64,000 bases of DNA, taken from assembly GCF_002197845.1 (NCBI RefSeq), contig NZ_NIDE01000002.1, positions 620,001 to 684,000 on the forward strand, written 5' to 3'. This document shows positions 12,922 through 62,684 of the stretch, piece by piece; positions within the stretch are counted from its first letter, which is position 1, and each line of letters starts with the position of its first letter. The notes beneath the pieces are model-generated. The model saw only the letters and a program-made list of their open reading frames with translations. It ran no database searches and was not told the DNA's origin. The translations under genes were made by a program, and so were the position numbers. This DNA is from Fimbriiglobus ruber (GTDB taxonomy: Bacteria > Planctomycetota > Planctomycetia > Gemmatales > Gemmataceae).

Positions 12922-13042
12922 GCCCCGTCCTCAGCCTTGCTTCGCCCAGTACCGCCATCTTTTTTCCCGCTCACGACAAGATGGAGCAAGTCCGTAGGAG
13001 TTACATCCTTCAAGTTGTCCGGTTCTATCTTCCAAAATTACG

Positions 13043-13435
13043 TTACTTCATCCTGCTCCGAATTGCTTTTAGCCTACGCAAAAGTGCGACGACATGCCCG
13101 TTCTCCAACATGGAGGCTAGATGTCCCTCGCAGAACCGATCCGCCCGGCAGTGCGTAGTAAGTAACTTCTGAATCGTGGTGGCGTCGGCATTCTCGATTT
13201 TTTTCGACGACTCCACGAACTCCTGGGCGGAATGCTGCCACTCGATCCAGTCGAACGCCGGCGTCACCCAACCGTTGTCGTAAAGAGCCTGATGGAACTC
13301 CAGGACGACCTCCTCGAAGCTGAACTGGGGAAACTGACCTTCCGACATCTTCCAGGAGCCGACCGAAAAGCCTGCCGCCTCGAATCTATCAAGGAAAGGT
13401 AGAATGGCATCGATCTCCTCTTTAGTCGGCATCAT
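13043..13435 (-). CDS. DUF6508-like protein
   Basis: 130 residues. The pattern WVTPAFDWIEW, then THCRADRFCEGHLASMLENG, fits DUF6508, a small family of unknown function often found beside toxin or defence genes. The DRFCEGHLA block is the most conserved part. It lies between the HEPN-CBS gene (71 bp upstream) and the double-helicase gene (121 bp downstream), same strand. Confidence 0.65.
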   Translation of the reverse strand: MMPTKEEIDAILPFLDRFEAAGFSVGSWKMSEGQFPQFSFEEVVLEFHQALYDNGWVTPAFDWIEWQHSAQEFVESSKKIENADATTIQKLLTTHCRADRFCEGHLASMLENGHVVALLRRLKAIRSRMK

Positions 13436-13506
13436 CTGACGTTACCTCTCTCGTTGCCCTTTTCAAACCGATGGCTTGAGGCGAACTCGGGCGATATTCA
13501 TGGCGG

Positions 13507-14223: not shown

Positions 14224-14410
14224 AATCGGTTCCCCTGCTTGCGATGCCGCTCGACCTCGGCCACTTTCGCCACCTAAGTGTATGCTGCCGCCGTCCAGTT
14301 CCGAAACGGCGACAAATCCGTGGATGCTGATGCGAACTGCGGATGAGTCGAGTGAATGGCCTCACCGCTCGTAAAGAGACAGAGCAACAAATTCTTCTGG
14401 TGAGGTAACA

Positions 14411-15970: not shown

Positions 15971-16004
15971 GGTAGGAGTTCCTGAAAGGACGAAAGGGAC
16001 GGCA

Positions 16005-16946
16005 TCACGGTTCCACGTCCCATACCCCGATCATCCCCGATTTCGATACGCCTACGAACCCGCCTTCGGGCCTGGGCCTGACGCAGGAGCAGCCGTCCAA
16101 CACGGGCCATGTCGCTACCACCCGACCTCTCCCTGCTGAAATCAATTCGCAGTTTGAGATTAGCAACTGGTGCGAGTCGGCGTCGTAAGCGAAATCGGTC
16201 GATTCGCTGACCGTCTCGTGGCACCACTTCTCGCCGCCGTCCTCACGGCTGATCGCCCGCACCGCACCGGCGTTCGAGACAAGGATCAGCTCCTCGGTGC
16301 ATTCGACACGCCCCGCCATCGCAAAGGGTAGGTCAAAGACGGAAATTGGCAGGAGGGATGCGGCGTTCAGCACGGACACGAAGCCCCGATCCTGCGACCT
16401 CAACCCGCTGAAAGCGAGAATTTGGCGTTGGCCGTCCTCAGTGACGGCAATCGCATCGACGCAGGTGCCCGGCAGTGCCACCCGCTCTACGCAAGAAGGC
16501 TCGTCGCCGTCCAAGTGCCACACTTCGGGCCACTTCTCGGCCCCCGCCCCCAACGAATAGTCGCCGGTGCCCAGCAGCAAATGCCCGCTTCCGAGCCAAG
16601 CGACAGAATGAACCGGCCCGGCTTCGGGAGCGACGTGGCGCACCGTGCCGCTCTCACCGTCCCACACGACCGCATGAGCGCCACTCGTGGCGACGGCGCA
16701 CCGCCCCGGATCGTCGGGGGCCGGTGAGAGGGAGCGAAAGATGTTGTTGACCGGAGTGCTTCCGAGGATTCGGCCAGCGGCGAACACCGTCTTCATCACG
16801 GCGAACGGGGAGAGCCGGACACGGACGAGGTTTCCCGACCAGTCGCCGACGATCACTTCATTCTGGCTGACGGCGGCGAGGCACGGGTAGCCCTGGCAAT
16901 TCCCGATGTACCGGGCCTGGTCGAATGAGCGGCACGTCGTCGTCAT
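16005..16946 (-). CDS. beta-propeller (WD40/PQQ-like) protein coupled to the helicase-nuclease
   Basis: 313 residues from ATG 16946. The start codon overlaps the TGA of the upstream gene (ATGA), which fixes the start and implies translational coupling. The sequence repeats a blade pattern about every 40 residues: NEVIVGDWSGNLVRV, CAVATSGAHAVVWDGESGTVRHV, SVAWLGSGHLLLGTGD, GFVGVSKSGMIGVWDV. It is probably a six- or seven-blade propeller, without a signal peptide. A propeller tied to a nuclease-helicase suggests a sensor or scaffold subunit. That role is inferred from coupling alone. Confidence 0.7.
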   Translation of the reverse strand: MTTTCRSFDQARYIGNCQGYPCLAAVSQNEVIVGDWSGNLVRVRLSPFAVMKTVFAAGRILGSTPVNNIFRSLSPAPDDPGRCAVATSGAHAVVWDGESGTVRHVAPEAGPVHSVAWLGSGHLLLGTGDYSLGAGAEKWPEVWHLDGDEPSCVERVALPGTCVDAIAVTEDGQRQILAFSGLRSQDRGFVSVLNAASLLPISVFDLPFAMAGRVECTEELILVSNAGAVRAISREDGGEKWCHETVSESTDFAYDADSHQLLISNCELISAGRGRVVATWPVLDGCSCVRPRPEGGFVGVSKSGMIGVWDVEP

Positions 16947-19900
16947 TTGCGTGTTCCCCTGTGACCGGCCTCGGTACTCCCGCCCCATACCGCCACCCGC
17001 TTTCCGCCCCGCTCCCCTTCCCACAGAAGGGTCGGGCAGGTGCGCAGCAATAGGTTCTTCCACAGTAAGGCGTTCTGGTACGTCTCCTCTTTCGGGCTTA
17101 ACAGGGTGAAGATGCTGCGGCTCGCCACCAAAATCATCTTCCGCTTCGCCCGGCTCACAGCCACCGTCAGTCGTCGAGGGTCCAGAAGAAACGTACTTGA
17201 TGCAAGAAGGTAGGCTCGGTCGGACTCCGTGGCGCTCACCAGGATGACCGTCCGCTCGCCGCCTTGGAACCGCTCCACCGTGTCGATGGCCGATCTCAAG
17301 GGAAGGCCACTGGCCGGGTCGAGGACGCACAACTCAGGAAAGGCTTGCTGGAGGGCAGCCCGCTGTGCCCGGTGAGGTACTACGATCCCCAGGCCGTGTT
17401 CGGCACTAAGGCCGTACTTCGCCGGGTCTACCAGCGCCTTCAGGATCGGTTCGATGAGCGACTGCTCGAACGGGTTCCGTACTTGGCTTTCGGCCTCGTC
17501 GTGCGTCACCACCACCAACGGGTAGTCAGGCCGCAGCACGGCGGCAACCAGATCGTTTTCATCGGGATGCGCCGCCAGCAAGTCCGTTTTCTTCGAGTGA
17601 TAAGCGATCCCGTCGTGCCGGTAGACTTCTTGTCTCAAGAATTCCGCCATCGTTGCATGAAGCCGGAAGCTCTCAGTGAACTGGATCATGGGCGGGTGCT
17701 GTGCCCGCAGCGTGTCGAACAGGCTTTCGTACACCTGGTACTGTTGGAAAGTGCGACGGGCTTCACCCTGCCAGTCGTGCTTCACGATGGGCGGCATCTG
17801 GCGGTGATCGCCGACGACGATCAGTGGGGCGTCCTCCTTCATCGGCAGCGCCGCCATGATCGCTTCCGGCAGATTCATCTGGCTGGCTTCGTCCAGCACC
17901 AGGAGATCGCAGAGTTGGTGCCCGAAGACGCACTTCGACCATTTCTTCTTCAACATCCCGTAGGTGCCGCCCGGCGTGATTCCCACGACGGACCACTGCT
18001 GCTCCTGAAGGATGTCAGCGTTGTAGTCTTCGCCCTTCTCCTTCTCGGCGTCTTTCTGCAAGTGGATCACGCCGACAGGCGGCGGGTTGTTGGGGGCCAC
18101 CCGGTAAAGGGGCACGTCGAGAAGGCGGGCGTCGAAGTGCGAGGCGAACAACGTGGGGTTGGCGTCCCGAAAACCTCGCAACTTCTCCTGGACCTCCAGA
18201 ACATTCTTCAGCAACACGTCGGTGGCTGCGTGGGTCTTGCACGACAAGAACACTTGGTAGGGACGGCCCTCGGCCATCGCTGCTTGCAGGCGAGCGAAGA
18301 CGGCGAAGGCGGCGGAAAAACTTTTCCCTGTGCCGGGCGGTCCTTGGACCAGCAGCACCGGCGTCCGACCATGACCGCCAATGAACTCCCGTTTGCTGGC
18401 CTCGAAGTCGTGGAACAGACCCGCCTGGTGGAAGGCGTCCAACCCGGCCAGGAACGCCTTCTGACCGGGAAGCCCACCCCCATCACCGTGGGGCGGCGTC
18501 ACCAGCCGGTCGTACAAGACGTTCGGCGACCCGTCGCACAGGCCGTTCACCACCTGGGCGCACCAGTACGAGTACCACTCGTTCGGACACGGATCGAGCG
18601 TGTAGAGCTTGTCGCCCTCCAGGGTCCGGTTGATCGCCTGGAAGACGTAAGGCTTCGACCAGTCGCCGCCACGGGACTCCTTCAACTCGACCTCGGCGAA
18701 CGCCTCCGTGACCCGCCCGGCGTCGTCCTTCTTGGCGGCGACGATGCGGAGGAGTTCGGCCCGTGGGCCGTAGAGCATCTGCTTGGGCGTCGGCGTGAAC
18801 TCGGTCTGCTGGTCCTTCGGCAGCCGCTCGTCCACGGTCAGCCGGGGGTACAGCACCAACCGGTCGCCGTCCCGCAGGGTGGACATCAGCAGCAGTTCGT
18901 GCAGGTCGCAATCGACGCCCTCGACCTCGATGCGGAGCCGCAGCCGCAGGCCCTCCGGCGACCACTTGCACTCGGCGGACTGGTCTTTGTTGAGCCGGAA
19001 CTGCTTGTCGGGGTTTACGGCCTTGAACGCCGCCGCCAGCGCCTCCCGCTTCTGCCTCCGCCGTTCGTTCTCCCGGTTCTGCTCGGCCACGCCCGGCTCC
19101 TGGTCGGCCTCGACGTAACGGAGCAGCAGGCAGTCGCCCATCAGCACCCGGCGTTCGGGCGGGGCGTGCCGGGTCGCCTTCCAGTCGCCGAGCGCCACCA
19201 GCCGCTCTATGGTGACGAACTCGTGCAGGGCGTGGGCGAGGTCGTGGGCCTTGTCCTCGTAGTGGGCGAGGTCGGGCAGCACGAACGGCGACTTTTGCGT
19301 GTTCGGGTTCCCCTGGATCGACCCGGCGACGTGTTCGAGCGCCTCCAGCCGCCGTGTCTCGAAGGCCGTCAGCAAGTCCGTGGTCGTTCCCCGGAAGTCG
19401 GCGAACTCGTCGTGCTTGCCCGCCTTCGGCAACTGGCCCCAGGCGGCGTAGGCGTACTCCAGCGGCAGCGAACTGGCGAACCGGGAGCGGCGGGTGTACC
19501 ACTCGCTCTGCCCGTCGATGTCCAGCTTGCCGATGTTGTCGAAGAGGCGGGCCTTGAACGCCTCCCGGAACTTGTGCGGGGTGTTCCAGTCGAACTTCAG
19601 GTATTGGGCGACCGACTGGAGCGATTGGCACGTCATCGGGTAGTTCTTGAACGTCCGCATCTCCTCGTCCAAGAAGCTGGCGATGGGCGAGTCGAAGGCG
19701 GCGATCTGCGTCAGGAAGTCGTACAGCGGCGGCGTGGCCTCCAGGATCGGCGGGAAGTTGCGGGCCAGCGCCTCCAGCATCACCCGCTGCTCGTAGCGGT
19801 CGAAGAAGACGACGTGGATCGGGGCGGACTTCTTCTCGCCGGTTCCTCCCTGGGCCAACTCGATGACGGTCTTCAACAGTTCCTTCGTCCAGCCCTGGAA

Positions 19901-21271
19901 GAGTTCTCGCTCCTTCGCCGCCGTGTCGGGCGGGCCGTCCGTCAGGTGGACCACGGCCTTCCTGCCGACCGGCGACCCGTCCTTACAGGCGACGACCAGC
20001 GCACCGAGCAGGTACACCCGGCCTTCGAGGTAATCCTGCTGGGCGTCCAAGAAGATGCGGACGAGGTTCGGGTTGATGTCGGGCTTCGATACCGGCAGCG
20101 TGCTGTTGCCCTTGCCGGGGACGTAGGAGAGGGCCTGCGTGCCGTCCTTGCGGACAGAGCGGCGGAAGCTCCTGGCCCGGTGGACCAGTTCATCCAGCCG
20201 GGGGCCGACCGGCCATGTGGCGGCGATCTGCTTGACCTGGGCCTCCCGGCCCGGAGCCGGGACGAGTTCGGTGGATTGCTTGCCGCCCGTCGAGGGGGCG
20301 AAATCCTTGAGCGTGGCGAGGGCCTGGACCGTGGTGACGCCGACCCGCCGCAGCGCTTCCTTCTCCGTGCCGGTCATGTACGGGAGCAGCGAGAGGTCTT
20401 CCCGCTCGGCGCTCCACTTCATGCAGAACTCGTTGTACAAGCAGCCGTCGCACTTGAACGACAGGCAATACGGGATGTTCTCGAACGGGGCCTCGGACAC
20501 CTGCCGGGCGACGGAATCCTTACCCAGCACGAGGTCGTGGGCCGACTGAAGGTAGGCGTCGGGGTCGGCGACGACTTCGAGCAGCGAGTCCTTGAGGCCG
20601 AAGACCGCCTGGGCCGCTTCCCGCAGCGGCTTGAATTCTTCCTCCTCGTCCGGGGTCGGGTCGGCGGTCGGTCGGAACAGGATGCCGGTCTGGACCGGGG
20701 CGTGGGCGATGCCGCCGTCCCGGAGGATGTGTTCCAACATGAGCCGGTAGAAGGCGACCTGGAGGCGGTGTTCGACCTTGGCCTCGGTCGTGGATTTCAT
20801 GTCGCCGATCAGGACGTGCAGCGTGTTGTCCGCCACACGCTCCAGCCGCATCAGGTCCACGTCGCCCCGGAGCCGCCAGCCGTGGAGTTCGGCGTCCATG
20901 CGGGCCTGGAACAGAAGCACCGACTGGCCGGGTTTGAGCTTCTTGGCCTCGGCGACGACCTCGGCGTTGTTGGCCGGGCGGTTATGGTCGAGCGAATACT
21001 TGGCGGCGAATTGCACGCTGGGGAACCGCTTGCCCAGGTCCGCCTCAATGCCCTCCTCGAACGTGCTGCCGGAGAGGGACAGGAGGGGCGTGATCCGCTG
21101 CGGGATCACGTCGTACTCTTCCATGAACTTCTGGCCCGCTCGCTCGGCCAGCCGGAACCGGAGGTAGCGCTCGCACTGCTCCAGGCGGACGAACTGCGAA
21201 ACGTCCGTGGGCGTCAGCCGCATCGGGCCGTCACGGGGCAGTACGGGGAGTGAGACGCTGGGACTCGGCAT
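16943..21271 (-). CDS. RecB-family nuclease + RNase H-like + SF1 helicase
   Basis: 1442 residues from ATG 21271 (GAGGCGA upstream; 21223 is a possible later start). Residues about 20-250 are a PD-(D/E)XK nuclease of RecB type with CERYLRFRL, VLIGDMKSTTEAK and QVAFY. Cys residues in SFKCDGCLYNEFC (about 275-290) could bind a [4Fe-4S] cluster, as in Cas4/AddB-like nucleases. Residues about 400-560 fit the RNase H-like domain of the TM0106 family (LVRIFLDAQQDY, VVFFDRYEQRVML). The C-terminal helicase has GPPGTGKSF (about 980), LVLDEASQ, VGDHRQMPP, VERFQGGERTVI and VAVSRAKRKM. It should unwind and cut DNA. Position directly after the BREX genes suggests an added defence effector, perhaps taking the place of the usual BREX-3 helicase. 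Confidence 0.85.
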   Translation of the reverse strand: MPSPSVSLPVLPRDGPMRLTPTDVSQFVRLEQCERYLRFRLAERAGQKFMEEYDVIPQRITPLLSLSGSTFEEGIEADLGKRFPSVQFAAKYSLDHNRPANNAEVVAEAKKLKPGQSVLLFQARMDAELHGWRLRGDVDLMRLERVADNTLHVLIGDMKSTTEAKVEHRLQVAFYRLMLEHILRDGGIAHAPVQTGILFRPTADPTPDEEEEFKPLREAAQAVFGLKDSLLEVVADPDAYLQSAHDLVLGKDSVARQVSEAPFENIPYCLSFKCDGCLYNEFCMKWSAEREDLSLLPYMTGTEKEALRRVGVTTVQALATLKDFAPSTGGKQSTELVPAPGREAQVKQIAATWPVGPRLDELVHRARSFRRSVRKDGTQALSYVPGKGNSTLPVSKPDINPNLVRIFLDAQQDYLEGRVYLLGALVVACKDGSPVGRKAVVHLTDGPPDTAAKERELFQGWTKELLKTVIELAQGGTGEKKSAPIHVVFFDRYEQRVMLEALARNFPPILEATPPLYDFLTQIAAFDSPIASFLDEEMRTFKNYPMTCQSLQSVAQYLKFDWNTPHKFREAFKARLFDNIGKLDIDGQSEWYTRRSRFASSLPLEYAYAAWGQLPKAGKHDEFADFRGTTTDLLTAFETRRLEALEHVAGSIQGNPNTQKSPFVLPDLAHYEDKAHDLAHALHEFVTIERLVALGDWKATRHAPPERRVLMGDCLLLRYVEADQEPGVAEQNRENERRRQKREALAAAFKAVNPDKQFRLNKDQSAECKWSPEGLRLRLRIEVEGVDCDLHELLLMSTLRDGDRLVLYPRLTVDERLPKDQQTEFTPTPKQMLYGPRAELLRIVAAKKDDAGRVTEAFAEVELKESRGGDWSKPYVFQAINRTLEGDKLYTLDPCPNEWYSYWCAQVVNGLCDGSPNVLYDRLVTPPHGDGGGLPGQKAFLAGLDAFHQAGLFHDFEASKREFIGGHGRTPVLLVQGPPGTGKSFSAAFAVFARLQAAMAEGRPYQVFLSCKTHAATDVLLKNVLEVQEKLRGFRDANPTLFASHFDARLLDVPLYRVAPNNPPPVGVIHLQKDAEKEKGEDYNADILQEQQWSVVGITPGGTYGMLKKKWSKCVFGHQLCDLLVLDEASQMNLPEAIMAALPMKEDAPLIVVGDHRQMPPIVKHDWQGEARRTFQQYQVYESLFDTLRAQHPPMIQFTESFRLHATMAEFLRQEVYRHDGIAYHSKKTDLLAAHPDENDLVAAVLRPDYPLVVVTHDEAESQVRNPFEQSLIEPILKALVDPAKYGLSAEHGLGIVVPHRAQRAALQQAFPELCVLDPASGLPLRSAIDTVERFQGGERTVILVSATESDRAYLLASSTFLLDPRRLTVAVSRAKRKMILVASRSIFTLLSPKEETYQNALLWKNLLLRTCPTLLWEGERGGKRVAVWGGSTEAGHRGTRK

Positions 21272-21321
21272 GAACAGGTCGCCTCGTATTCGGCGGGTTC
21301 GGGGCCACAAACACGCTCCCG

Positions 21322-21660
21322 CTACCTCGCCCGCCTTTTGATCTCGGCGACCTTGCCGACCAAGTACCCGATCTCGTCGCCATCAAGTTCGGCGACCGGG
21401 GCAACGCCGTGGATGTTCTTGATGAGGTCTTCGGATGCACCGAGAAACACCTTGAACGCCGTCTCGCCATCGCAACGACCGAGCAAGTGGCCGTCCGGCG
21501 TGATGACCATTTCGATCAGTCGGGGCGTCGTCCAGTCCTCCCCCAGCAGGCAGCCCAGGATCGCCTGGAAATGATCGCTGACCTCGACCGCCCGGACCTT
21601 GCGGGCGCAGTCCCGCCGAATCTGGTCGGGGTCACGGATGGGGAGGTCGTCGTGGGTCAT
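21322..21660 (-). CDS. 112-aa protein of the BREX-linked operon
   Basis: No family recognised. It is compact with alternating strands and helices (RLIEMVITPDGHLLGRCDGETAF, VGKVAEIKRR). Its N-terminal IRDPDQIRR closely resembles IRDPEQIRR near the start of the ParB-methyltransferase 5.7 kb away, and the DNA is nearly identical over about 20 bases. It lies 15 bp after the ApeA-like gene and about 50 bp before the helicase-nuclease start, so it is almost certainly co-transcribed. Confidence 0.65.
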   Translation of the reverse strand: MTHDDLPIRDPDQIRRDCARKVRAVEVSDHFQAILGCLLGEDWTTPRLIEMVITPDGHLLGRCDGETAFKVFLGASEDLIKNIHGVAPVAELDGDEIGYLVGKVAEIKRRAR

Positions 21661-21675
21661 CTCTTTTGGAATCCG

Positions 21676-23157
21676 CTACACATACACCGTGTACCCCATT
21701 CTCGCACTCTCAGCCAAACGAGAGTGGCTATTGGCAAGTAAATCCCTGATGGCCTTTTCGTCGAGACCAAGCTCCTTCAGCAGCACGATAGTCACGAGCA
21801 GTCGCAGCCGAAGGTAGGCGGCGTACAAATCTCCCCCCTTGAACGCCTGGGCCTGAAGTTCGCTAGAATAGTGGGTTAGATAATTTCTAGTTGCAGTAAC
21901 TTCTTCGCAGAACTTTCCCAGCGTAGGCGTGACCAGCTTTGTTGTGTCGTCTTCCAGTGAGCAGAGTAACTCACGAAGCCGCTTACGCAACGAGTATTCA
22001 TTCCCGTACTTGATCTTGCCTTGAACGAGGCTGTTGCGAAGGTCTTGTGGAGTAGTCGTCGGCAACGCTGCCTTCAATGCAGCGGCGATTTTCTCGTAAT
22101 CAGCTTCAGGGAGGTACTTTCCACCTTGGACTCGGCGGCAGTAGGTCTCTAGGGCTTGAATCAGGCCAAGAAAGCGAAATTGAAGGAAGAGGTAGTTGTT
22201 GTAAATCACGCCGAAGAAGAGATCGCAGACGTTCTCCAGCAGTTCTCTCTTGGCGAACCAGGAATCGAGGATCGTCCCAAAGTGTGCCGAAACAGCAGGG
22301 AACATGGCAAGCATCTTGACAGGGTGGAGCCTCTCCCCAATTTTGCCGTGGGCCGGATGGAAGAAAAGTTGAATGTCTTCCCGATATGTAAATCCAGGCC
22401 CGGCAATCTCGTCGCCGTATAGAACCGTGCGCTTGGGAAACGTCGGCTCGCCGATGAGCAGGGTCAAGAGGTTCTGGAGATCGACAATACGCTCTAGGAA
22501 CCAGTCGAATGGCTGCTTCGCCGCAGGTTTCACCGTCAATAGTGCCACATGCTCACGGCTCTCCTTATGGAAGCTGGCAAAGCCACCGAAGAACATCTGC
22601 GAGTCTATGAGGATGTCGCAACCGAGCGAGGCTACTGGATAATTGAGTTTGTCCGGCACTACATACCGAGAGAGGTAGGTCGTCGTTTCGCCTGCGGCGT
22701 CTTTCTCTTCATCTTGTGGCGGGAATGGCTTGTACGCAAGCCACTCCTCCAAGTGAAGGTAGTTGATAGACAGTGAATGAAAGAGCAAGTCGGCCTTCGA
22801 CCCGAAGTGCTTGCCAATGAGGAGGCAGCCTGCGGACAGGGTGGAACTCCCTGTACCGTGTGGGATAGTTGTGCTGGTTCCGATCTGCGTGCATTCGTAG
22901 AGGGTCAGCTTCTTGCCGTTCTGGGCTTGTCCCAGAATAATGTCAGCCTTGAACGGCGGTCCCACAACCGCAAGCTGTTGAAGCGTCGTTTCGACCAGCA
23001 TCCCAAGTAGGCTCAACGTGATGTCGGAACTGGCGAACCGAACAACGCCTGGGATTTTCCGATCTGGTGTCGCTGGCAGCCAGAAGTAACCCTGGTACTC
23101 GAATGAGTCGAACAGGGTCGTATCAAGGCGTGCCTCCTTTTCGGCATCTTGCGACAT
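21676..23157 (-). CDS. ApeA-like HEPN anti-phage protein
   Basis: 493 residues. The N-terminus fits the ApeA N-terminal domain (FEYQGYFWLPATPDRKIPGVVRF, then LSLLG), a beta-rich sensor-like module of about 280 residues. The C-terminal third is helical with ATRNYLTHYSSE, an R-x4-H motif of catalytic HEPN RNases. ApeA proteins act by abortive infection, cutting RNA after sensing a phage. It lies 24 bp after BrxL on the same strand, so it is embedded in the BREX operon, which would give a suicidal second layer behind BREX. Confidence 0.75.
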   Translation of the reverse strand: MSQDAEKEARLDTTLFDSFEYQGYFWLPATPDRKIPGVVRFASSDITLSLLGMLVETTLQQLAVVGPPFKADIILGQAQNGKKLTLYECTQIGTSTTIPHGTGSSTLSAGCLLIGKHFGSKADLLFHSLSINYLHLEEWLAYKPFPPQDEEKDAAGETTTYLSRYVVPDKLNYPVASLGCDILIDSQMFFGGFASFHKESREHVALLTVKPAAKQPFDWFLERIVDLQNLLTLLIGEPTFPKRTVLYGDEIAGPGFTYREDIQLFFHPAHGKIGERLHPVKMLAMFPAVSAHFGTILDSWFAKRELLENVCDLFFGVIYNNYLFLQFRFLGLIQALETYCRRVQGGKYLPEADYEKIAAALKAALPTTTPQDLRNSLVQGKIKYGNEYSLRKRLRELLCSLEDDTTKLVTPTLGKFCEEVTATRNYLTHYSSELQAQAFKGGDLYAAYLRLRLLVTIVLLKELGLDEKAIRDLLANSHSRLAESARMGYTVYV

Positions 23158-23181
23158 GAAATGATCCCCACTTGTACAGGT

Positions 23182-25221
23182 TCAAGACAGCGTAACCAGC
23201 GCCGCCGCCAGCACTTCGTCAATCGACGACACGAACCGGACCTTGATCTTGTTCCGTACATAGTCCGGAGTCATCTGCACGTCTCGTTCGTTCTCCTTGG
23301 GCATCAGCACTTCGGCGCACCCGGCATCGATGGCGGCCTGGAGCTTTGGCAGGACGCCGCCGATGGCAAGCACCTTGCCCATAATCGTGATCTCGCCGGT
23401 CATGGCGAGATCGTTACGAACGGGACGGCCGGTGAGAGCGGAGACAATCCCGGTGACAATGGTGATCCCGGCTGACGGGCCTTCCTTCGGGATACCCATC
23501 ATCGTGGCGAGGACGGCGATATCGTAGTTCTCCTGCCAGTTAATCGGCAGCCCCACTTCCTTGGCGTGCGTCTTGATGAACTGAGCGGCGGCAGCAACGC
23601 TCTCCTTCATCACTTTCTGCATCGAGCCGAGGCTTACGATCCGCCCAGCCCCTCTCGACGCCTGCATCTCGAAGTGCAGAAGGCAGCCTCGGTCGTCGCC
23701 GATTACTGCCAGCCCGACGACCTCGCCCACCCGTGGCGCACTCGGCAGGGCGACCTTTTGCTCCCGCTGGGAGTCTGGCAGCTTCGGCGTGACCAACTTC
23801 CCGGACTGGACCAACTTGCCAGTCAGGACGACCGGCCCGTACTCCCCTGCGGCCATCAGATGGAGCTGGTGACGCACCCGCTGCCGCCCTTCGATGGCGA
23901 CTTCGAGGAGTTCCCCAAGCTGCTCGTCGGTGACTTCCCCGTGCGGGTACATGAGCTTGAGCAACCCGGACAGCACTTTTTCGACGCCTCGCACATCCCG
24001 CCCAGTGATCCCCGCCTTCGCCGTGGATGTGTCGAGCAACTGGAACCTGCCCTTGAGCGGCCCTAACACATCCTTCCGCCGAAGCTCGTGCATGATCTCG
24101 CAAAAGTAGTCGGTGATGAAACCGTAGTCCTGCGCCAGCGACCCCGGATGAATTTTGGGAATTTCCCAGCCGGGCAGGTAACTGTGTAGCCTGTCGATGA
24201 ACGCCTCAACTTGGAGGAAGTCGGGCAGTGGCTCGAACAGGTGGTAATACTTCTCATGCGGCAGCTTGGCCTGGATGTCGATGTTGCCGACCATAACGAT
24301 GGAGGCGAACGCCAAGATCTCCTTCTTCCCCCGGCTGAACTTGGCGTCCTGCATGTAGCCCTGCATGATCGATACGAGGGCCTTCGGGTCGGTGAAATCT
24401 GTGTTTGCGATTTCGTCGAACACCACCACGTCCCGACTTCCGACCACACCGACCTTCCCAGTGGCGTTGTTGATGAACAGGCTGGCCGGGGTCGCCTTGC
24501 CGCCCGACAGCACCGTAACGTAGTAGCTCTGGTTGCGGTAGATGTAAGTCTTGCCGGTTTCCCTGGGAGCCAACTCAATAGTGTTGCAGTTCGCCTCGAC
24601 CAGCGGAACGAGCCGCCAGAGATAGAGGAGCTTCTCACGTCGGGAGAGCGGAACCGGGTTCAGGCCGATGGAGTTAATGAGGAAGTCCAGCCAGTCATCC
24701 GCCTCGAACTGCCTACGCTTTTCGATGTACTCGTTGAGGTCGATGATCGAAATCTGGAAGGGCGTAAACTCCGTGACCTTGAATGGGCGAATCTTCTTGT
24801 TGTGTACCTCGGTTTCGTCGTAGGTTAGGGAAATTGTTCCCCACATGCCGCCCGACAGCAACATCGGGTACTGACGCACAAGGCTTTCCGTCACGTTCAC
24901 GAAGCTCTCGTTGATCGCCCCAATTGTCCCCCAATACTTGTCCTCCGTCTCCTGGAGGCGGACCTCCAGGTTGGCGATGATGCTGTGGTTCCGTGTCTCC
25001 CGAATCTGATGGCGAATCTTCTCGGCCTCGGCCCCGTGGACGAAGTTCTCCCTCAGCCGCTTAATGACCTGCTGCAAGTCGTCCTGGAAACTTTCTTCGG
25101 TGCAGTAGTTGTCGATCAGGTACTCGACGACGAAACGGGGGAACTCATCGACGCCCGTGTTCACGGTCAGTCGCTTGTTGACCACTTTGCCCCGGAAGGC
25201 GTCTTTGAAGCGGGTTTTCAT
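23182..25221 (-). CDS. brxL: BREX protein BrxL (AAA+ with Lon-like C-terminus)
   Basis: 679 residues, usual for the family. The N-terminal block ([29 protein letters not shown]) is diagnostic. The central AAA+ region has APRETGKTY (about 219) and [12 protein letters not shown] (about 269). The C-terminus is Lon-like with [16 protein letters not shown] (Ser near 580) and [10 protein letters not shown] (Lys). BrxL forms DNA-binding ring assemblies and is needed for phage exclusion in BREX types 1 and 4. It is 12 bp from PglZ. Its pairing with a type-3-like methyltransferase and BrxF-like protein is unusual. Confidence 0.93.
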
Positions 25222-25233
25222 GATTCCCCCATG

Positions 25234-28065
25234 TTAGCGCAGCCCAGCGGGAACCATGCCCATGATACTATCGAGCTTACTGTCCAGGCGGCGACGAATG
25301 CGGGTTGTGTCCAGTTGAATCTCCACCCTGCCGTGAACCGTCGTCCGCAACGTGCGGTTCTGCCAGCGGTAGCTGGCGATGGCCGTCACCTGCTTGACCA
25401 CCTTGCCCGTGGCCTGCTCCTCCGTGGTCGGGTTATCGACCTTCGGCGTCCAACGCACCCGGTACTCCTGCTCGGTCCCGGTGAAGACCTCCTTGCGGGG
25501 CTGGATGTCGTCCAGGCCAGCGTCCACCTGAAGCTGGAGCAGCAGTTCCTCCTTCACCGGCGTTTTAGCCTTGGCGGTGATAAGAATGTCGAGCGGCTGC
25601 CCCTCCGAAAGCACGCCCTCGAACCGGATGCCGACCAGATCGAAGGCTGGCTCGAACTTCACCTTCGGCCCCAGCACGATCATAGGGATCATGCACTCGG
25701 CCATGCTCAACCCGCCGTGCGTGTACCGCTCCGGGTTGTGCTTCCCCTGGGGCCGCTTCAGCGTGAGGCCGGGTCGGGGGAATAGGATGTGGTTGAAAGA
25801 CCACTTTGTCTTCCCGGTCTTATCGGGGATGCCAAGGTCGCCGACCTTGAACAGCACGCCTTTCTTCGAGTCGCTGCCTTCGAGCGGCCTTTTCAACCGC
25901 CCCACCCGGTACTTCACGTCTCCGCTGTCGGTCAACACGCCGTCTGGCACGGTAAAGGTCGGTTCGGGGACAGGCGTGAACCCGTGGTCCGAGGTCACGA
26001 ACACGGTGGCGTTGTCCGGCATCTCCCGCAGCACGCTCCGCACGTCCTGCCGCAGAATCTCTCGCACGGTCGTGTCGTAAATGAACGATAGATCGGCGGG
26101 GTTGTTGTGCAGATTCTTGTCGGTGAAGTTAAAGATCACCACGTCGATGGGGTCCGATGTGTAGTGCGCCGTAATCCCGCACTCCACCGCCTCGTTTTGG
26201 CTCTTGACCTTGAACTTGACGGTCAGGTTGAGGTTCGTCTTGAGGGCGTACTCCATCAGAGCGTTCTCGCTCGTGCTACTGAAGGCGACCGGGAGGCAGC
26301 CTGCAGAGATCGCCTTACGGCTCAGGTGCGTCTCGCTCGGCAGGATAGCGCTGCCGGGGAGCCGGTCGAGAACGTCGTACTTCTCCTCCAAGACGGGCCG
26401 GACCAGTTCCTCCCATGCGTCCACCCGCAGGCCGTCGAAGATCAGGACCACGGCCTTCTGGCCGCTTTGGGCGTCCCAATGCGTCTTCAGCACCCTCGAC
26501 ACGAATTGGTGCGTGAAGATCAGCGGCGAGTCGTCCCGGTTGATCCACTTGACGTAGTTGGCGTGGTACAGATCTTGGAACTTGGCGTTTGCGGCGTCTA
26601 CGTCCTGATCGACCGCCTTGATGCTCTCGTTGAGCTTTTGCTGGGCGGCTTCCCAGCGCAGCGTGAGTTGTGGCCAGAACTGACCCTTGGGGACCGGCAG
26701 GATGTCGCCGACCTGAACCAGCCGACGCAGGCCGCTGGTATAGTAGTCGAGGCGGTTGGCCTTCTCCTCGTTCCATAGCTGAAGGAACTGGTCGATCTGA
26801 AGCTGGTCGGGCATAAGCACCTTCAGCTTGTGGACCTGGGCCTTCAGCTTGTCGGCGATGTCGAGGAACTGGATCGCACGCCGGTACGTCGCCAGCAACG
26901 TAGCCCACTGCGGCGGCGGGCGGCGGGCGGCGATGGAGAGCGTGTCCTCCTTGCCCTTGGTCCCCTCCTCGTCGATTAGGCTCAACACGCCCTTGTGGTA
27001 GTCCTTCTGGCGGTTGACCAGCAGGTCGGTGAGCAGCGACAAGAGAGCCATGCTGCGCACGAGGGACGAAAGCTTCTCCTTGAGCAGCACCTTGAAGGCT
27101 TCGTCCCGCTGGTCGAGCTTCAGCCGGTCAGCCAGCAGGAAGGTCAGTCGCTTCTGCGGCTCCTCCTTCAAAAACTCCTCGACCGCCGCCACGTCGTTGG
27201 CGATCTGATCGGGGTCGGCCCGGAGCATGTCCTTGATCGTCGAGTCCAGGGACCGCTTCGGGATTGCCTTGAAAGGCTCTAGGCTTGTATCGAAGTTGGG
27301 GAGCAGTACCTCGTACTCCAGGCCGTGCTGGTGCAGGACCGCCGCCAGCGTGAAGGCCCGGACGACCGCCTGGGGGTCGTGGTCCAGCATCCAGCACCAG
27401 GGCTTCTCGGCCTTTTCGATCTGGCCCTTCAAATGGGCAAGGACTTCGCTGGCCTCGGTCCCGACCCCGGAAGAAAAGAGGTCTTTAATCTGCTCCAACC
27501 GCTCGTGGTTTTCGATGCAAAGGCGTCGAATCGCAGCGGGCTTCAGAATCTCGAACGGGTTCACGTTCAGCGTGGCCCCCAGGACGATCTTGTACAGGTC
27601 GCTGTCCTGAAAGCGATGCTCGTCCACGTCCCGCAGTTGGCCGTAGGAATCGAGCGCCTTCTCCTGGTGGTCGAGGACGAGGCGGCTCAGGTTGCGGTCG
27701 CTGTTGACCAGTGGGGGCCAGCGCTGGTCCCCGGTCCGCTCCACCAGGAAGTCCCGAAGCGTGATGGTCAGCCGGGCCTTCGGTTTGCAGCGGGCTTCGA
27801 GGTCGGGGTAGAAGAGGGGCAGTTTCGCCTTTTCACGGCTCCGGTCCACCAGGATGATCTTGGCGGACGTGTCGTTCCGCAGGTTCTCGTACATCTCCCG
27901 CAGAGCAAGATTGCCGCTGCAAAACAGCACCGTGAAACCGTTGTCCTTGGCCCAGCCATCAACCGCCTGCGCACCGGCCCGGATCATTCGCTGGGGGTCA
28001 GCGAGGACGATGAGCTTTTCCCCCTTGAGGGGGTTCAGTTTGTCGATGACCCATTGCTCTAGCAT
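25234..28065 (-). CDS. pglZ: BREX phosphatase-like protein PglZ
   Basis: 943 residues. The N-terminal 400 residues are helical, starting with [24 protein letters not shown]. The alkaline-phosphatase-type domain has [15 protein letters not shown] (about 545), [11 protein letters not shown] (about 690) and a THGGLSMAE segment with a metal-ligand His. PglZ is the hallmark of all BREX types and is required for both methylation and exclusion. Gene spacing is 38 bp from the methyltransferase and 12 bp to BrxL, so one operon. Confidence 0.93.
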
Positions 28066-28103
28066 CGCTGCGGTTCCTCATCCGGTCAGGCTCGGCCCGA
28101 TGG

Positions 28104-30701
<2,598 letters not shown>

Positions 30702-30710
30702 GACGCTCGC

Positions 30711-33700
30711 CTACTTGATTTCGAGGATCGTGAACTGACCCTTGCCGTCACCGTCTACCGCAGTTTCGAGGAATCGGCGGAACTCGCTGACCACACTTTC
30801 GATGTCAGCCTTCTCCACCTTGGTCTTAGTGGGCTGGAAGTCGTGCAGATGTACCACCTTCACGATGATCCGCTTCAGGTACTTCGCCAGCAGTTTGGCG
30901 TTCCCCGGATCAGCCGGGACGCACTCAGCCAGGATGTCCACCAGCTTTTCTTCGTTCGGCGCAGCCAACACGCTGGCGACGAACTTCTCCTGCTTGCCCT
31001 GCTCCAGAAGGGACCGGAGCGCCGGTTGCCGCAACAGGCTCGCCATGTTCTGTAACGCCCCCTGAACCTCCCCCTTCGCTGTGCCCAGGGCCTCTTCCGC
31101 AGCCGTCACGAACTGCTCAGCCTCGTCCACATGCAGCGGGCAGCCTTCCGGCTGCGGCCGGTCCTTCAAGGCCCGCTCCACGGCGTTGTGGTCCAGCGGC
31201 GATTGGAACAGCACTTCCTTGTAGCTGGTCACTTCGCCCTTGAGGGCGCTCACGTCCACGCTGGCGAGGGCGTCGATCTTGGCAAGCTCGGCGATGGCTA
31301 GGAACTGCCGTGAGTCCGACAGCCCGTCGATCTCGCTGCGGACTGCCTCGCACTTCCCCGTCACTTCGTTGAACGCCTGGAGGTAGCGGGTCTTGTAGAC
31401 ACCCTGAACGCCGTCGAGCAGGTCGAGAAGTTGACTTTGCAGCTTGGCCTCCGACTCCATAAGGTCTTGGACCTGTCCGAGCTTCTTGCCGAGGGTGCGG
31501 AGCTTGTCCTTCAGCTCGCCAACCGGCCCGGACTTCTCGACGGTCAGTTGCGAGTAGCGGTGCGCTGCCCTGATCTTCTGATCGTGGCGGCAGAAGGCGA
31601 CCGCCTTTTCCCAGGTCTTCTTCCGAGTCGCAAGGTCGTCGAGTTCGGTCCCCTTCGCCTCCTGGTCGGCGTAGCAAGTGTAGCCGAAAGCCGTGTCGAA
31701 GGCGTTGAGCTGATGGGAGATCGCTTCAGCGTCGTCGATCTTGGCTGTCAGGAATTTCTGCCAGGAGCCGAGAGTGTCGGCCACTGGGTTGGGTTGCTGG
31801 ATGTCGGCCATGAGCGTGTCCAGGTGGTCGATCAGCGTCTCGACTTCGGGCCTTTGCTGCGCCCGCCACTTCTTCAGCCGGTCCAGGGCCGTGGTGATGT
31901 CGCCGTCCTTCTGGATCGTCTTCAGGGACTCGTCGTCGAGCAGGATGGCGGCGAATGGGGCCAGGACCGGCCAACCATCCGGGGCCTTGAGCCGCTGAAT
32001 CTTTGCCATCGAGTTCAGCAGGGCGGCGTTGAAGGTCTGGTCGACGACGTTGGTGTAGTCGAGGGCGTCCACCGCCCCCTTGCCCGACAGCAGGATGCGG
32101 AGCTTCCCCTCCCGCACGAGGCAGAGCAGGTACACGTCGATCATCCGGCGAGACAGGCCGTAATTCTTGTCGTTCGGCCCGCCCAGGCCGGTGAAGTTCT
32201 TGCACACCGTCTCGACCGAGATGTTCTGGTTCCCCTGAGTAGTCTGCGTCTCGATCCACTCGTCGAGGTCTTCGACGAACTCGTTGCCCTTCGTGTTGAG
32301 CTGCTTCGTGCCGTCCTTCTTCATGACCCCCAGGGCATAGCCGTAGTTGTCGGCGGCGCTGGTGAACTGATTAGGCTTGGTCCCCTTGGGGATGTCGCCG
32401 GTCTTGACGACGCCGTTGATGACCTTGATGGCCTCGGCGTCGTTGAATGGGGCCGGGGCGTCGAACTGGATCGACTTCGAGGCGTACACGCCGTCGAGGA
32501 CGTGGCCGACGAGCGGGGTCAGGATCGACAGCAGTTCACCCTGACAGTTGAACGACATGCTGCTGTGGTCGGCTGCACTGATCTGCCCCCTCCCGAAACT
32601 GTCGGCGACGATCTTTGCGATGCTGCCGATCTCGTCCCGCAGTCGGTTGGCGACCCATACCACGACTTCCTTGGCATCCTCGGTGTCTTTGCTTTGGTAA
32701 TCCTTGACGAGTTCTCGGTATGCAGCAAAGTCGAGGAGCCGGTCCCGCTCCTGGGAGGTCAGTTGGCCCGGTGTCCAGAACAGCGTGCGGGGGTCGCCGA
32801 CCTTCTTGGCGAGGTCGGTCACCTTGTCGCCGCAGGGCCGGTTGCTGATGAAGACGGCGAAATCGTGGTCAGTGTTCGGGCTGTTGATCGGTGGGAGCGC
32901 CTGCCCCTTGCTGGCGATGTCGAGAAGGTCACGCATGTAGACCCGCCCCTTGATCGTGCGGCCGTGCCACTCGACCTCGAAATCCTTCTGCTCGGCTGGG
33001 GCAACGCCCCGGAAGAGTGACTTCGTGCTGCGGGCGAGGTCCATCGTCAGCAGCGTGGACTTGATCTCCCAGCCATCCAGGGCGAGAAGCTGGTTCCAGG
33101 CGTCCCGCTGCTTGGCGTCGTTTCCCTCGCTGGCGCTCCGGGCCTTGGCGAAGAGTTCCTTGACATCGACCCCGCCCCCTTCAGGGTTGAACACGAAGTT
33201 CTTCCCGGCCTTCTTGACCTGCGGGATTTCCTTCGCCAGTTCGTCCAATAGGACTTCGTAGTGGTCGAGGTTGTCCTTGATGTCGGCCTTCTGGCCCTTG
33301 TCGTGGTCGGCCCACTCCATCACCGAGTTCATGACCTCCTCGACCGACAGGCCGTTCGGCTGCATCTTGGCGATGTAGTACAGGAACAGCGTCTTGAGAA
33401 TCTTCTCACAGCGGGCGTGGTAGACCTTCAGCCGCCCCTTCGTCGCCTGCCCGATGATGCGTCGGCCAGCTTGGTACGCCTTGAACTCCTCGTTGAACTT
33501 GGAACTGATGGCGGCGATGCCCGCCGTCGTGCCGGACGGGTCTTCCTCGTAGCTCACCACGTCGTCAAACATCTGCCAGAGCGTGATGAGTTCGTTCGAC
33601 TTCGCCTTTCGCTGGGTTTTGAGTGTCTGGTGCATGAAATGCACTGAGGAACGGAGAGTCGTCAGGTTGTAACTGACCGCCCGCAGCACGTCGATGGCCG

Positions 33701-34973
33701 GTTTGAAAAACGGAAAGAATCGTCTGAACGTCTCGCTGCCGATGGCGTCGGGCCAAGTGAACCCCTTGTGGTAGTCCTCAAAGTACGGCCCGACGGAGTT
33801 CGGCTGAGTGACGTTCCGTACCCTGGACAGCACGATGTCGTAGAAGTTCGTCTCGTCTTGCAGCAGGGAGACGTTCTTGAGCCGGTCGTTGGCGATGATA
33901 TTCTTCACGCCCATTTTCGATTCGAGCGCCTGCTGCGCCGAACAGATTGTCCACACGGGCAGGCAGTGCGTCTTCGCCAGCCGGTTGGTAAGGACCACGA
34001 GCGTCTTTTCGTCCTCCACCCGCTGCTCGTCGGTCCTATTCTTCATGAACAGCGACACTTCGTCGAGGATCAGCAGCAGCCCCTCGTAGCCCTGGGCGAG
34101 CAGCGACTCGACCATGAACTTCAGCACTTCCTCCGACTCGCCCGGCAACTTCGGAGTGACCTGGAGGTACTCGGTGTAGAACCGCCAGAGCTTTTGGCCG
34201 CAGTCCCGACGCACCGTCTGCGACTTGGTGCTGCGGAGGTCATAGAGGAACTTGTCTAGGTCTTCCTGCTCCTCCTCGTCGAAGAACTTCGGGTCTTTGA
34301 GGAACTTGCCGAGGTCTTTCCGGTAGCGGTCGATGTCCTGCTCGAACCGATCCGCCAGTACTTCGACCGGGTACACGGAGATCGTCTTGCCGTTCTCGGC
34401 GTGGTACTGGTCCTGCACAGCGTCGAGGATGTACTCCGTCAACTTGCGGCCAGTGTCGGTCACCCCGATAGTCCCGCCACCTTGACCCACCAGGGTCTTC
34501 ACGGCGACGAAGATGCCCCTCGACTTGCCAGTGGACTTCTTGGCGAGGCCGCTGTCGTAGAACTGATACAGCGACTCCCGCTTGCCCTTCTTGGCCTTCG
34601 TCTCCAATTCGTTGACCGTCTCCCACACCTTCTTGTCGCCCAGGGCCACCGCCCCGATGAACGAGAGCAGGTGCGACTTACCAGACCCGAATTCTGCCTG
34701 AATCCACCAACCCTGGCCGATTGGGTTTGCCTTGCTACTGGGGTCGTAGGGAGCAGCAAGCTGGCGCAGCACGTCGTTCAGGAGTGACCGCACTGGGTCG
34801 ATGAGGAAGTCCCGAACCGTCCGTGGCTCCGCACGCCGCTTGCGCTTCGACTCGGCCTCCGAATCGACCGTGCCGCCCTGCCAGATGTGCCGCTCGACGA
34901 CGTACACATCAATGATGTCGTCGGGAACGTCGCAGAGTTGATCGAGCGTTTGCCGATGGAAGAGGTTGCTCAT
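30711..34973 (-). CDS. brxC: BREX ATPase BrxC/PglY
   Basis: 1420 residues from ATG 34973, which overlaps the upstream TGA (ATGA). Walker [11 protein letters not shown] lies near residue 98 and Walker [12 protein letters not shown] near 300, followed by sensor-like segments. The rest is long, helical and rich in coiled-coil patterns ([21 protein letters not shown]). This fits the BrxC/PglY family (DUF499/DUF6079-like), the large AAA ATPase conserved in all BREX systems. It probably assembles on DNA with the methyltransferase and PglZ. Confidence 0.88.
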
Positions 34974-35506
34974 TCGCTCAACTCCCACAGGTGATTCTCA
35001 GGCACCAAGTTGGTCGGCAAGGTCCGATGGTTCTGCACTTGGGCCTCGTGGAACAGCGTAATACGGTCCCCCACTTTCTCGCCCGGCAGGAGGATGAGGA
35101 TGTGCTTCTGGTTCGTCGCCCGGATGCGGAGGCAATTCAACTCCAGGTCGTAGGCGAACAGGATTTCCAGGTTCTTGATCGCCAGGAAAGAGCTGCCGTT
35201 CAGCCGCTCGGCCACCAGCGTGTCGAGTTCCTTCGCCAGTCGGTCCTTCACGCTCTCCGTGCGGCTAGCCTCGGTTTGGACCATCCGCTTGAGTTCATCG
35301 TCGTTGATCCGGTCTAGCAGGCTGTGGTTGATGTTCACCGGGTCGCCGAGCCTCTGACCGCTCGGCGAGCGGGTTTCTCGAAAATCGACCCGTTCGTAGC
35401 GATCCAACCGGTCGTAAGTGCCGAGGACAACGTACAGATGCCTTCCGGTCGGCATTTCGAGCTTCTGCCGGAGGTGCGAGTTGATCTCGTGGCCAGACAA
35501 TTTCAT
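34970..35506 (-). CDS. BrxF-like protein without a visible P-loop
   Basis: 178 residues. The C-terminal half ([21 protein letters not shown], then [18 protein letters not shown]) matches the BrxF pattern of a strand, ELF-helix and final PG-hairpin. [12 protein letters not shown] resembles the BrxF segment after the nucleotide site. However the first 30 residues ([18 protein letters not shown]) show no GxxGxGKT, so ATP binding is doubtful. BrxF is specific to type 3 BREX. It overlaps both neighbours by ATGA (start with the BrxA-like stop, stop with the BrxC start), so the three are translated as a unit. Confidence 0.6.
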
Positions 35507-36552
35507 ACGGGCGACTCCTTGGCAAACGCCACAATGCGCTGCACTGCATCGGCAAGAGTGTACCTCGTGGTGAACTGGCGCATGCGGTCGATCTCACTTA
35601 CCTTGGACAGTAGCCCGGCTTCCCGCAAGCGGTATAGCTGCCGGATCATCCACTGCTGGTCCCACAGCATCCACCTATGCATGGGGCCATCTAGTAACTT
35701 CTCGAAGGCATGCATTCCCGGTTCGGGAAACTCTAAGTGCAGAACGTAAGCGAACGACACGAGCGATCCTTCACGAACCGCCACGTTGAGGCGGGTGCGG
35801 TTGGCCGTGCCGAGACCGTAGAGTTGATAGCTCCGCACGATGGCCTGTCCGATGTGGTTCGCCGACTTTGAATCAGGGAACTTTGCCTGAACATACTCCC
35901 TAATGCGGGCTCGGGTTATACCGCCTTGGGCAAGCGATGGGAACACAACTTCCTCGGCGACAAGCGAGACAATCTTCTCCGTACGACAAGTCAGATAGAA
36001 CAGAGCTTCTCCCAGCGCCAAAGTTCCCGCAGTGGCGGCGCAAAACTGCGGAACATCCTCGTGGTATACGGCATCCGGGAAGAAGCGGCTGACGATGTAG
36101 TTGGCCGTACGGCGGCGGGTCGCCTGCGAGTTGAAACGCAATTTCTCAGAGAGGTGGGCACGGAATTCGTCCACCGAGCGATACTTGGCTGCTTGCGGAA
36201 GATGTAGAAGGGCGTGGTTGGCGAAGTCTTTGGCGTAAACCCGGAGCGTCGGCTCTGGAAACCGAGGGAAGGGCTCAGGTGGTGGTGGGGCGTCTTTGGC
36301 ATCCCCACTGATTCCATCAAACAGAGATCGCTCGGTTGGCGGAACAACAGTGGGCATCCCCAACTTCCCGTCGATCCGGCCCTTGAGCCGGTTCACGGTG
36401 TCTGAGATGTTCTTTCTCAGTTTGTGCTGGTCCGCTAGTGGGGCGCTTTCGACTGCTTCCCATAAAGCACGAACTATTGCCACCACCGACTCAACTGAGG
36501 GGGAGTTGTTGAGAAGAGAAGCAGGGCGACGAGTCCGATTCGTTCTTGCCAA
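35503..36552 (-). CDS. BrxA-like first gene of the BREX operon
   Basis: 349 residues from TTG 36552. After a low-complexity first 100 residues, residues 100-345 are helical with winged-helix traits: [39 protein letters not shown] and [22 protein letters not shown]. The last blocks resemble BrxA (DUF1819), a DNA-binding BREX subunit, but this protein is longer. The match is by pattern only. It starts the operon, 78 bp from the divergent XRE gene, and its stop overlaps the start of the BrxF-like gene (ATGA). Confidence 0.5.
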
Positions 36553-36630: not shown

Positions 36631-36975
36631 ATGGGAAACCGGATGATGTTGACGTTCGGCCAGAAGATTCGGGAGCTCCGCAAGGCAAAGGCCCTTGGTC
36701 AACGGGCCGTCGCCGCCGAAGTCGGCATCAACTTCACTTACCTCTCGAAGATCGAGAACGACAAGGTGGACTTCGCCGCCTTCCCTAGCGAAGAAACAAT
36801 CCGCCGGCTTGCGAAGGTGCTTGATGCCGACGTGGACCAACTTCTCCTCATGGCTGAGAAGATTCCCGACCGCATCAGGCGACGGGTTTTAGAACGCCCC
36901 GAAGCCTTCCGGCTGATCGCCGAACTGGACGACAAGTCGCTCGACCGCCTCGTAGAAACGATAAGGGTAAGCTGA
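36631..36975 (+). CDS. XRE regulator divergent from BREX
   Basis: 114 residues from ATG 36631 (36643 or 36646 are also possible starts). A Cro/C1 helix-turn-helix covers residues 6-65: FGQKIRELRKAKALGQRAVAAEVGI, then FTYLSKIENDKVDF. This variant, with the FAAFPSEETIRRLAKVLDAD extension, is found beside defence systems. Facing the BREX operon across 78 bp, it is the best candidate for its repressor or activator. Confidence 0.85.
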   Translation: MGNRMMLTFGQKIRELRKAKALGQRAVAAEVGINFTYLSKIENDKVDFAAFPSEETIRRLAKVLDADVDQLLLMAEKIPDRIRRRVLERPEAFRLIAELDDKSLDRLVETIRVS

Positions 36976-62681: not shown

Positions 62682-62684
62682 AAC

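What the first reader, a model, noticed from the sequence alone, without database searches (positions are those of the whole stretch)
21322..36552. BREX locus with mixed type 3 and type 4 hallmarks
Order on the minus strand is BrxA-like, BrxF-like, BrxC, PglXI-like methyltransferase, PglZ, BrxL, then ApeA-like and a 112-aa protein. BrxF and the zinc-ribbon N4/N6 methyltransferase point to type 3, while BrxL and the nearby PAPS-reductase-like gene point to type 4; the type 3 helicase BrxHII is absent. All spacings are under 40 bp or ATGA overlaps, so this looks like one functional operon and possibly an unnamed BREX subtype.
Basis: partly seen in the sequence, partly recalled or inferred. Interest (0 to 1): 0.75.

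Follow-up and report, generated by a model that had tools for sequence, protein, structure and literature searches.

The report
Hybrid BREX with intact Lon protease
A bacterium related to Gemmata carries a complete anti-phage BREX operon that fits none of the six named types: type 1 gene order with a type 3-like methyltransferase, and a BrxL protein that still has the protease active site other BrxL proteins have lost.

Summary
Window 23182-36552 (minus strand) encodes brxA-brxF-brxC-pglXI-pglZ-brxL, followed by an ApeA HEPN gene and a 112-aa gene. Same-order cores recur in two other planctomycete assemblies, and partial loci in four more, two of them Chloroflexota. BrxA and BrxF match family profiles only weakly, but their predicted folds find BrxA (7zge) and BrxB (9zll) first in the whole PDB. 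BrxC, PglZ, BrxL and the methyltransferase each form their own clade, outside types 1/6 and, where sampled, types 2 and 3. The PglZ reaches no NCBIfam subtype cut-off. The type 4 reading fails: no PAPS reductase in the window, no DUF4007 found in the operon. The better description is type 1 order with type 3-like BrxF and methyltransferase, and no BrxHII. New here: BrxL keeps the Lon Ser583-Lys626 dyad, absent from every type 1/6 BrxL checked, which suggests a working protease. ApeA, the 112-aa gene and a downstream nuclease-helicase look like exchangeable cargo: a related locus carries Gabija in that slot. Best reading: an unnamed, rare, horizontally spread BREX subtype. Mechanism is inferred, not tested. 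Caveats: few complete loci, thin type 4 and type 5 references.

The parts
35503..36552 (-). brxA-like, 349 aa (TTG start), winged-helix DNA-binding component
   Evidence: PADLOC BrxA E=0.005; model core residues 107-265 at pLDDT about 80, top PDB hit 7zge BrxA, Z 12.7 over 182 residues; profile match to Halorarius BrxA 97%
34970..35506 (-). brxF-like, 178 aa, BrxB/BrxF fold, no Walker A seen
   Evidence: NCBIfam BREX_3_BrxF E=5e-4; profile match to type 3 BrxF 70% (P=4e-5) against 0.6% to type 1 BrxB; low-confidence model whose top PDB hits are BrxB chains of 9zll
30711..34988 (-). brxC, 1425 aa, Walker A (from residue 101) and Walker B (from residue 306) intact
   Evidence: PF10923 28.7 bits and PF19557 27.8 bits, both over cut-off; own clade 100/100*; motifs
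28104..30701 (-). pglXI-like N6/N4 methyltransferase, 865 aa: DPFSGSGGT at 103, DPPY at 439, Cys pairs at 170-222, hypervariable 326-425
   Evidence: PADLOC PglXI 7e-86; variability; own clade beside type 3
25234..28065 (-). pglZ, 943 aa, metal site D544, T579, D693, H694, H783 intact
   Evidence: PF08665 4e-9; best NCBIfam BREX subtype PglZ_3 at 66.7 bits against cut-off 250; site alignment; tree
23182..25221 (-). brxL, 679 aa: BrxL_N, BrxL ATPase, and Lon domain with Ser583-Lys626 dyad
   Evidence: PF13337 1e-111, PF05362 4e-51; dyad; Lon domain closer to Lon protease 7p6u (140 bits) than to the BrxL C-domain 8eil (40 bits)
21676..23157 (-). ApeA-like HEPN ribonuclease, 493 aa, cargo; HEPN motif R-X4-H (RNYLTH at 424)
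   Evidence: PF18862 7e-54, PF18739 3e-26; motif
21322..21660 (-). 112-aa protein of unknown function, defence-associated small gene
   Evidence: no family hit; 76-86% copies in three other genomes: after Gabija (G035), after a broken type 1 BrxL (G044), after DISARM drmABC (G011)
16943..21310 (-). 1455-aa PD-(D/E)XK nuclease plus Dna2/Upf1-like SF1 helicase, neighbour or cargo rather than core
   Evidence: PF12705 4e-9, PF13087 8e-21; best PDB hit Dna2; found without this BREX in G034, G030, G033
36631..36975 (+). divergent XRE-type helix-turn-helix regulator, 114 aa
   Evidence: PF13560 1e-10; 75% copy upstream of brxA in L010; G035 has an XRE-like ORF at the same place

Best explanation
This is a complete anti-phage BREX operon of an unnamed lineage, with a six-gene core brxA-brxF-brxC-pglXI-pglZ-brxL and an exchangeable effector slot behind it. 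Inferred working: the PglXI-type enzyme marks host DNA at a site set by its variable domain; BrxA, BrxF and the BrxC ATPase assemble a scanning complex; on unmarked phage DNA, PglZ nicks or cuts as a metal-dependent nuclease and the BrxL ring loads on the DNA. Because BrxL keeps a complete Lon active site, it probably also digests a protein, either a phage protein on the DNA or a control subunit. ApeA adds a last-resort RNA-cutting response. Shown: gene content, order, clade separation, intact active-site residues. Inferred: every step of the action.
For: Two other planctomycete assemblies have the same six-gene order: G035 and G443, where small genes are inserted. In both, BrxC and BrxF are 81-83% identical, PglZ 77-81%, BrxL 91-93%, PglXI 57-62%. 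Trees: BrxC clade 100/100*, sister to Halorarius (87/91), separate from types 1, 2 and 3; PglZ clade 100/100* with Halorarius 95/90*, while seven type 3 PglZ form their own clade; methyltransferase clade outside type 3; BrxL clade outside 15 type 1/6 BrxL. PglZ reaches no NCBIfam subtype cut-off, whereas planctomycete references reach PglZ_2, PglZ_6 and PglZ_1B. Catalytic residues intact in PglZ, BrxC and the HEPN. Lon dyad kept in three of three orthologues and lost in all type 1/6 BrxL checked. PglXI residues 326-425 are 20-30% identical between loci while the C-terminus is 80-90%, as expected of a target-recognition segment. [quoted passage not shown] Helper nucleases beside BREX: PMC12839542.
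Against: Only three complete loci; four more are cut by contig ends. The two Chloroflexota members have no methyltransferase between brxC and pglZ (one has a GmrSD gene there), so the full gene set may be typical only of planctomycetes. Type 4 is represented by one unusual plasmid, type 2 by planctomycete loci only, and no type 5 reference was taken. BrxA and BrxF profile matches are weak, and the BrxF model is poor (mean pLDDT 59.5). No activity is shown, and an intact dyad does not prove proteolysis.
Confidence: 0.7

Rival explanations
1. A type 3 BREX whose BrxHII helicase gene was replaced by BrxL, so merely a diverged type 3 locus.
For: BrxF profile and PADLOC PglXI match type 3 best; of the NCBIfam BREX PglZ models, PglZ_3 scores best.
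Against: Type 3 PglZ, BrxC and methyltransferases each form a clade that excludes this lineage. The order differs: sampled type 3 loci end in pglZ-brxA. Canonical type 3 loci with BrxHII occur separately in the same phylum.
Confidence: 0.15
2. A type 1 BREX whose PglX was replaced by a type 3-like methyltransferase.
For: Gene order is exactly that of type 1, and BrxL is of type 1 length.
Against: BrxC, PglZ and BrxL all lie outside the type 1/6 clades, and BrxF does not match BrxB by profile.
Confidence: 0.08
3. The intact Lon dyad is a leftover of ancestry, and BrxL acts here only as a DNA-binding AAA+ ring, as in type 1. (This rivals only the protease step, not the subtype.)
For: Type 1 BrxL restricts phage although its C-terminal domain does not share the residues essential for Lon protease activity (PMC10164562).
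Against: The dyad and the surrounding Lon motifs are conserved in three planctomycete loci; the domain is much closer to real Lon proteases than to the BrxL C-domain.
Confidence: 0.35

Closest known systems
Type 3 BREX (brxF-brxC-pglXI-brxHII-pglZ-brxA)
   Same: BrxF-like protein, PglXI-type methyltransferase with Cys-pair motifs, and the closest BREX subtype PglZ profile
   Different: No BrxHII; BrxL present; brxA comes first, not last; BrxC, PglZ and methyltransferase outside the type 3 clades
Type 1 BREX (brxA-brxB-brxC-pglX-pglZ-brxL)
   Same: Identical gene order by role; BrxL of the same length with a Lon-like C-terminus
   Different: Methyltransferase is PglXI-type, not PglX; BrxF-like rather than BrxB-like by profile; Lon dyad intact; separate BrxC, PglZ and BrxL clades
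Type 4 BREX (PAPS reductase, DUF4007, BrxC, PglZ, BrxL)
   Same: PglZ plus BrxL present; BrxL passes the TIGR02688 cut-off
   Different: No PAPS reductase in the window and no DUF4007 match in the operon; a methyltransferase is present; BrxL has a Lon domain that type 4 BrxL lacks (PMC12839542)
Halorarius halobius plasmid BREX-like locus (NZ_CP101162.1)
   Same: Closest outside relative of BrxC (23%, 2e-48), methyltransferase, BrxA and BrxF; groups with this PglZ (95/90*)
   Different: Methyltransferase comes first; no BrxL or BrxHII annotated; a metallophosphoesterase follows pglZ

Membership tests
BREX superfamily | PglZ and BrxC encoded together | tested here: met
   PF08665, PF10923 and PF19557 over cut-off in one operon
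Type 3 BREX | BrxF | tested here: inconclusive
   NCBIfam E=5e-4 but 19.7 bits against cut-off 50; profile 70% to type 3 BrxF
Type 3 BREX | PglXI/BrxXI methyltransferase with internal recognition domain | tested here: met
   PADLOC 7e-86; hypervariable insert 326-425; but outside the type 3 clade
Type 3 BREX | BrxHII Swi2/Snf2 helicase | tested here: not met
   Roseomonas BrxHII gives no tblastn hit at E<1 in the window
Type 3 BREX | PglZ over the BREX-3 cut-off | tested here: not met
   66.7 bits against 250
Type 1 BREX | Gene order A-B-C-X-Z-L with BrxL | tested here: met
Type 1 BREX | PglX methyltransferase | tested here: not met
   PADLOC best hit is PglXI and Pfam best is N6_N4_Mtase; type 1 PglX gives no tblastn hit at E<1 in the window
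Type 1 BREX | PglZ over a BREX-1 cut-off | tested here: not met
   PglZ_1_B 29.4 bits against 400
Type 4 BREX | PAPS reductase | tested here: not met
   PF01507 hits lie on other contigs
Type 4 BREX | DUF4007 | tested here: not met
   no Pfam DUF4007 hit in any operon protein
BREX-Related (DUF499) systems | DUF499 ATPase | tested here: not met
   BrxC hits DUF6079 and BrxC_BrxD, no DUF499 hit
Active Lon (S16) peptidase | Ser-Lys dyad in Lon_C | tested here: met
   S583 and K626 in canonical motifs
Active Lon (S16) peptidase | Measured proteolysis | not testable with these tools
   needs purified protein

The most novel reading that the evidence does not exclude
A seventh BREX subtype in which BrxL is a working DNA-loaded Lon protease, so that phage exclusion joins DNA marking and a PglZ nuclease with targeted protein degradation, plus an interchangeable effector slot.
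Probability: 0.35. Interest if true: 0.8.

Novelty: new variant of a known kind. Interest (0 to 1): 0.6.

Why it matters
How BREX stops phage, and what BrxL's Lon-like domain is for, remain open questions. All type 1/6 BrxL proteins checked here lack the Lon active site, and the literature treats the domain as non-proteolytic. A BREX lineage that keeps the site gives a direct test: one point mutant (S583A) asks whether proteolysis is part of BREX. The lineage also shows that BrxF and PglXI can sit in a type 1-ordered operon with BrxL instead of BrxHII. That argues these modules are interchangeable and that the current types do not cover the family; such a locus reaches none of the subtype PglZ cut-offs in NCBIfam.

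Tried and rejected
PAPS reductase near the locus: none. The 112-aa protein as a core part: first suggested by an 86% copy in G035, rejected when copies turned up beside DISARM and a type 1 BREX remnant. The nuclease-helicase as the missing BrxHII: rejected, it is SF1 Dna2-like and occurs alone in genomes without this BREX. A viral-contig scan with BrxC found no relatives. The only genome-contig scan used two short exact peptide patterns and so finds close kin only. Low GC3 of pglXI as a sign of recent exchange: dropped, since it is low in all three loci (the GC3 of L012 pglZ printed there is out of frame and is ignored). The structure models have modest confidence (mean pLDDT 59.5 and 61.8), so their fold hits are used only as support. 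Literature searches found no report of this arrangement; the paper's supplementary tables could not be read.

Full report
What is there. On the minus strand from 36552 to 23182 lie six close-packed genes: brxA-like (349 aa), brxF-like (178), brxC (1425), a PglXI-type methyltransferase (865), pglZ (943) and brxL (679), followed by an ApeA HEPN gene (493), a 112-aa gene and a 1455-aa nuclease-helicase. Gaps run from -19 to 38 bp. An XRE regulator points the other way at 36631. The window lies in a 12.4 Mb planctomycete genome that holds one PglZ-domain gene, this one.

Are the small genes BrxA and BrxF? Profile scores are weak, so folds were predicted from five- and six-sequence alignments. The BrxA model is confident only for residues 107-265; its first hit in the whole PDB is BrxA 7zge, Z 12.7 over 182 residues. 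The BrxF model is poor (mean pLDDT 59.5), yet its first two hits are BrxB chains of the BrxC-BrxB-PglZ complex 9zll. By profile comparison BrxF matches type 3 BrxF (70%, P=4e-5) and not type 1 BrxB (0.6%), with unrelated controls at 11% or less; BrxA matches the Halorarius BrxA at 97%.

Conservation. Two assemblies share the whole order. G035, the same contig as L012, is 81-93% identical in brxF, brxC, pglZ and brxL, and 57-63% in pglXI and brxA. G443, a Pirellulaceae assembly, has a toxin-antitoxin-like pair between brxC and pglXI, and an SF2 helicase with small genes between pglXI and pglZ. Partial loci are in Fimbriiglobus (L010) and another planctomycete (L014), both cut by contig ends, and in two Chloroflexota: L013, with a GmrSD gene between brxC and pglZ, and G575, with brxC next to pglZ. 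The lineage is rare: 2 of 59 close genomes by PglZ, and no clear further case in 392 of the phylum. That sporadic spread across phyla suggests horizontal transfer.

Where it falls. The BrxC tree puts six members in one clade (100/100*), next to Halorarius (87/91), apart from types 1, 2 and 3. The PglZ tree does the same (100/100*, with Halorarius 95/90*), with seven type 3 PglZ in a clade of their own. The methyltransferase lies beside, not inside, type 3, and BrxL lies outside 15 type 1/6 BrxL. NCBIfam's PglZ subtype models all fall short (66.7 bits against a 250 cut-off for the best), while planctomycete references reach the models of types 2, 6 and 1B. The most recent survey (PMC12839542) says BrxL is confined to types 1 and 4, gives type 3 a BrxHII helicase, and discarded some unassigned hits.

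The Lon dyad. Window BrxL has PKEGPSAG (Ser583) and GGVLPK (Lys626), as do G035 and G443. None of the type 1 or 6 BrxL examined has the pair, and in a wider planctomycete sample the GPSAG motif appears only in this lineage and in a separate group of BrxL genes that includes one more in this genome. The Lon domain scores 140 bits against a true Lon protease and 40 bits against the solved BrxL C-domain. Published type 1 BrxL is said not to share the residues essential for protease activity (PMC10164562). Proteolysis here is therefore plausible but untested.

Likely working. PglZ has all five metal-site residues; PglZ of type 1 is a metal-dependent nuclease (PMC12205998). The methyltransferase has intact motifs and a segment (326-425) only 20-30% identical between loci, as expected of a recognition domain. 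The inference is host marking, recognition of unmarked DNA by the BrxA/F/C assembly, cutting by PglZ, and BrxL acting on DNA with a possible protease step. HEPN, OLD/Gabija and PD-(D/E)XK genes beside BREX are a known pattern (PMC12839542). Here ApeA occupies the slot that holds Gabija in G035 (gajA 1.5e-203, gajB 8e-258).

No PAPS reductase is in the window, so the type 4 argument falls. The closest simple description is type 1 order with type 3-like BrxF and methyltransferase. The 112-aa gene and the nuclease-helicase are mobile neighbours, since each occurs elsewhere without this system.

Limits. Three complete loci, thin type 4 and type 5 references, modest structure models, and no experiment. 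Novelty is judged against the open-access papers and databases searched here.

Noticed in passing
L099 (AP024153.1, Abditibacteriota plasmid pIAD-21), 1733-14383: Type 4-like operon (DUF4007/SspB, SspC-like BrxC, PglZ, short BrxL) with an Eco57I-type methyltransferase as its first gene, where type 4 would carry a PAPS reductase.
   Followed up: partly
L142:9594-11642 (same genome, contig 17) and L091:13315-15360: BrxL genes outside any recognised BREX, each behind a long uncharacterised gene, that also keep the Lon Ser-Lys dyad; L091 also has Res/Mod-like genes nearby.
   Followed up: partly
window 21322-21660; L033:14828-15154; L140:4465-4785; L141:688-1014: A 112-aa gene of unknown function, 76-86% identical, at the end of four different defence operons: this BREX, Gabija after BREX, a broken type 1 BREX, and DISARM.
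   Followed up: yes
window 57801-63914: Two tyrosine recombinases and a TraG/TraD-like coupling protein, so an integrative conjugative element may lie near the BREX locus.
   Followed up: no
window 3085-4227 and 14411-15970: An ArdC-like antirestriction gene and a ParB-domain plus N6/N4 methyltransferase fusion to the left of the operon, typical of mobile elements.
   Followed up: no
window 9292-12921: A 1209-aa protein with two helicase modules (AAA_11/12 and UvrD_C_2), resembling MkoA and NERD-UvrD defence helicases.
   Followed up: no
L009 (NZ_CP101162.1, Halorarius halobius plasmid), 10096-21332: Archaeal sister locus: methyltransferase-BrxA-BrxF-BrxC-PglZ-metallophosphoesterase without BrxL or BrxHII, flanked by a divergent UvrD and PD-(D/E)XK pair.
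   Followed up: partly
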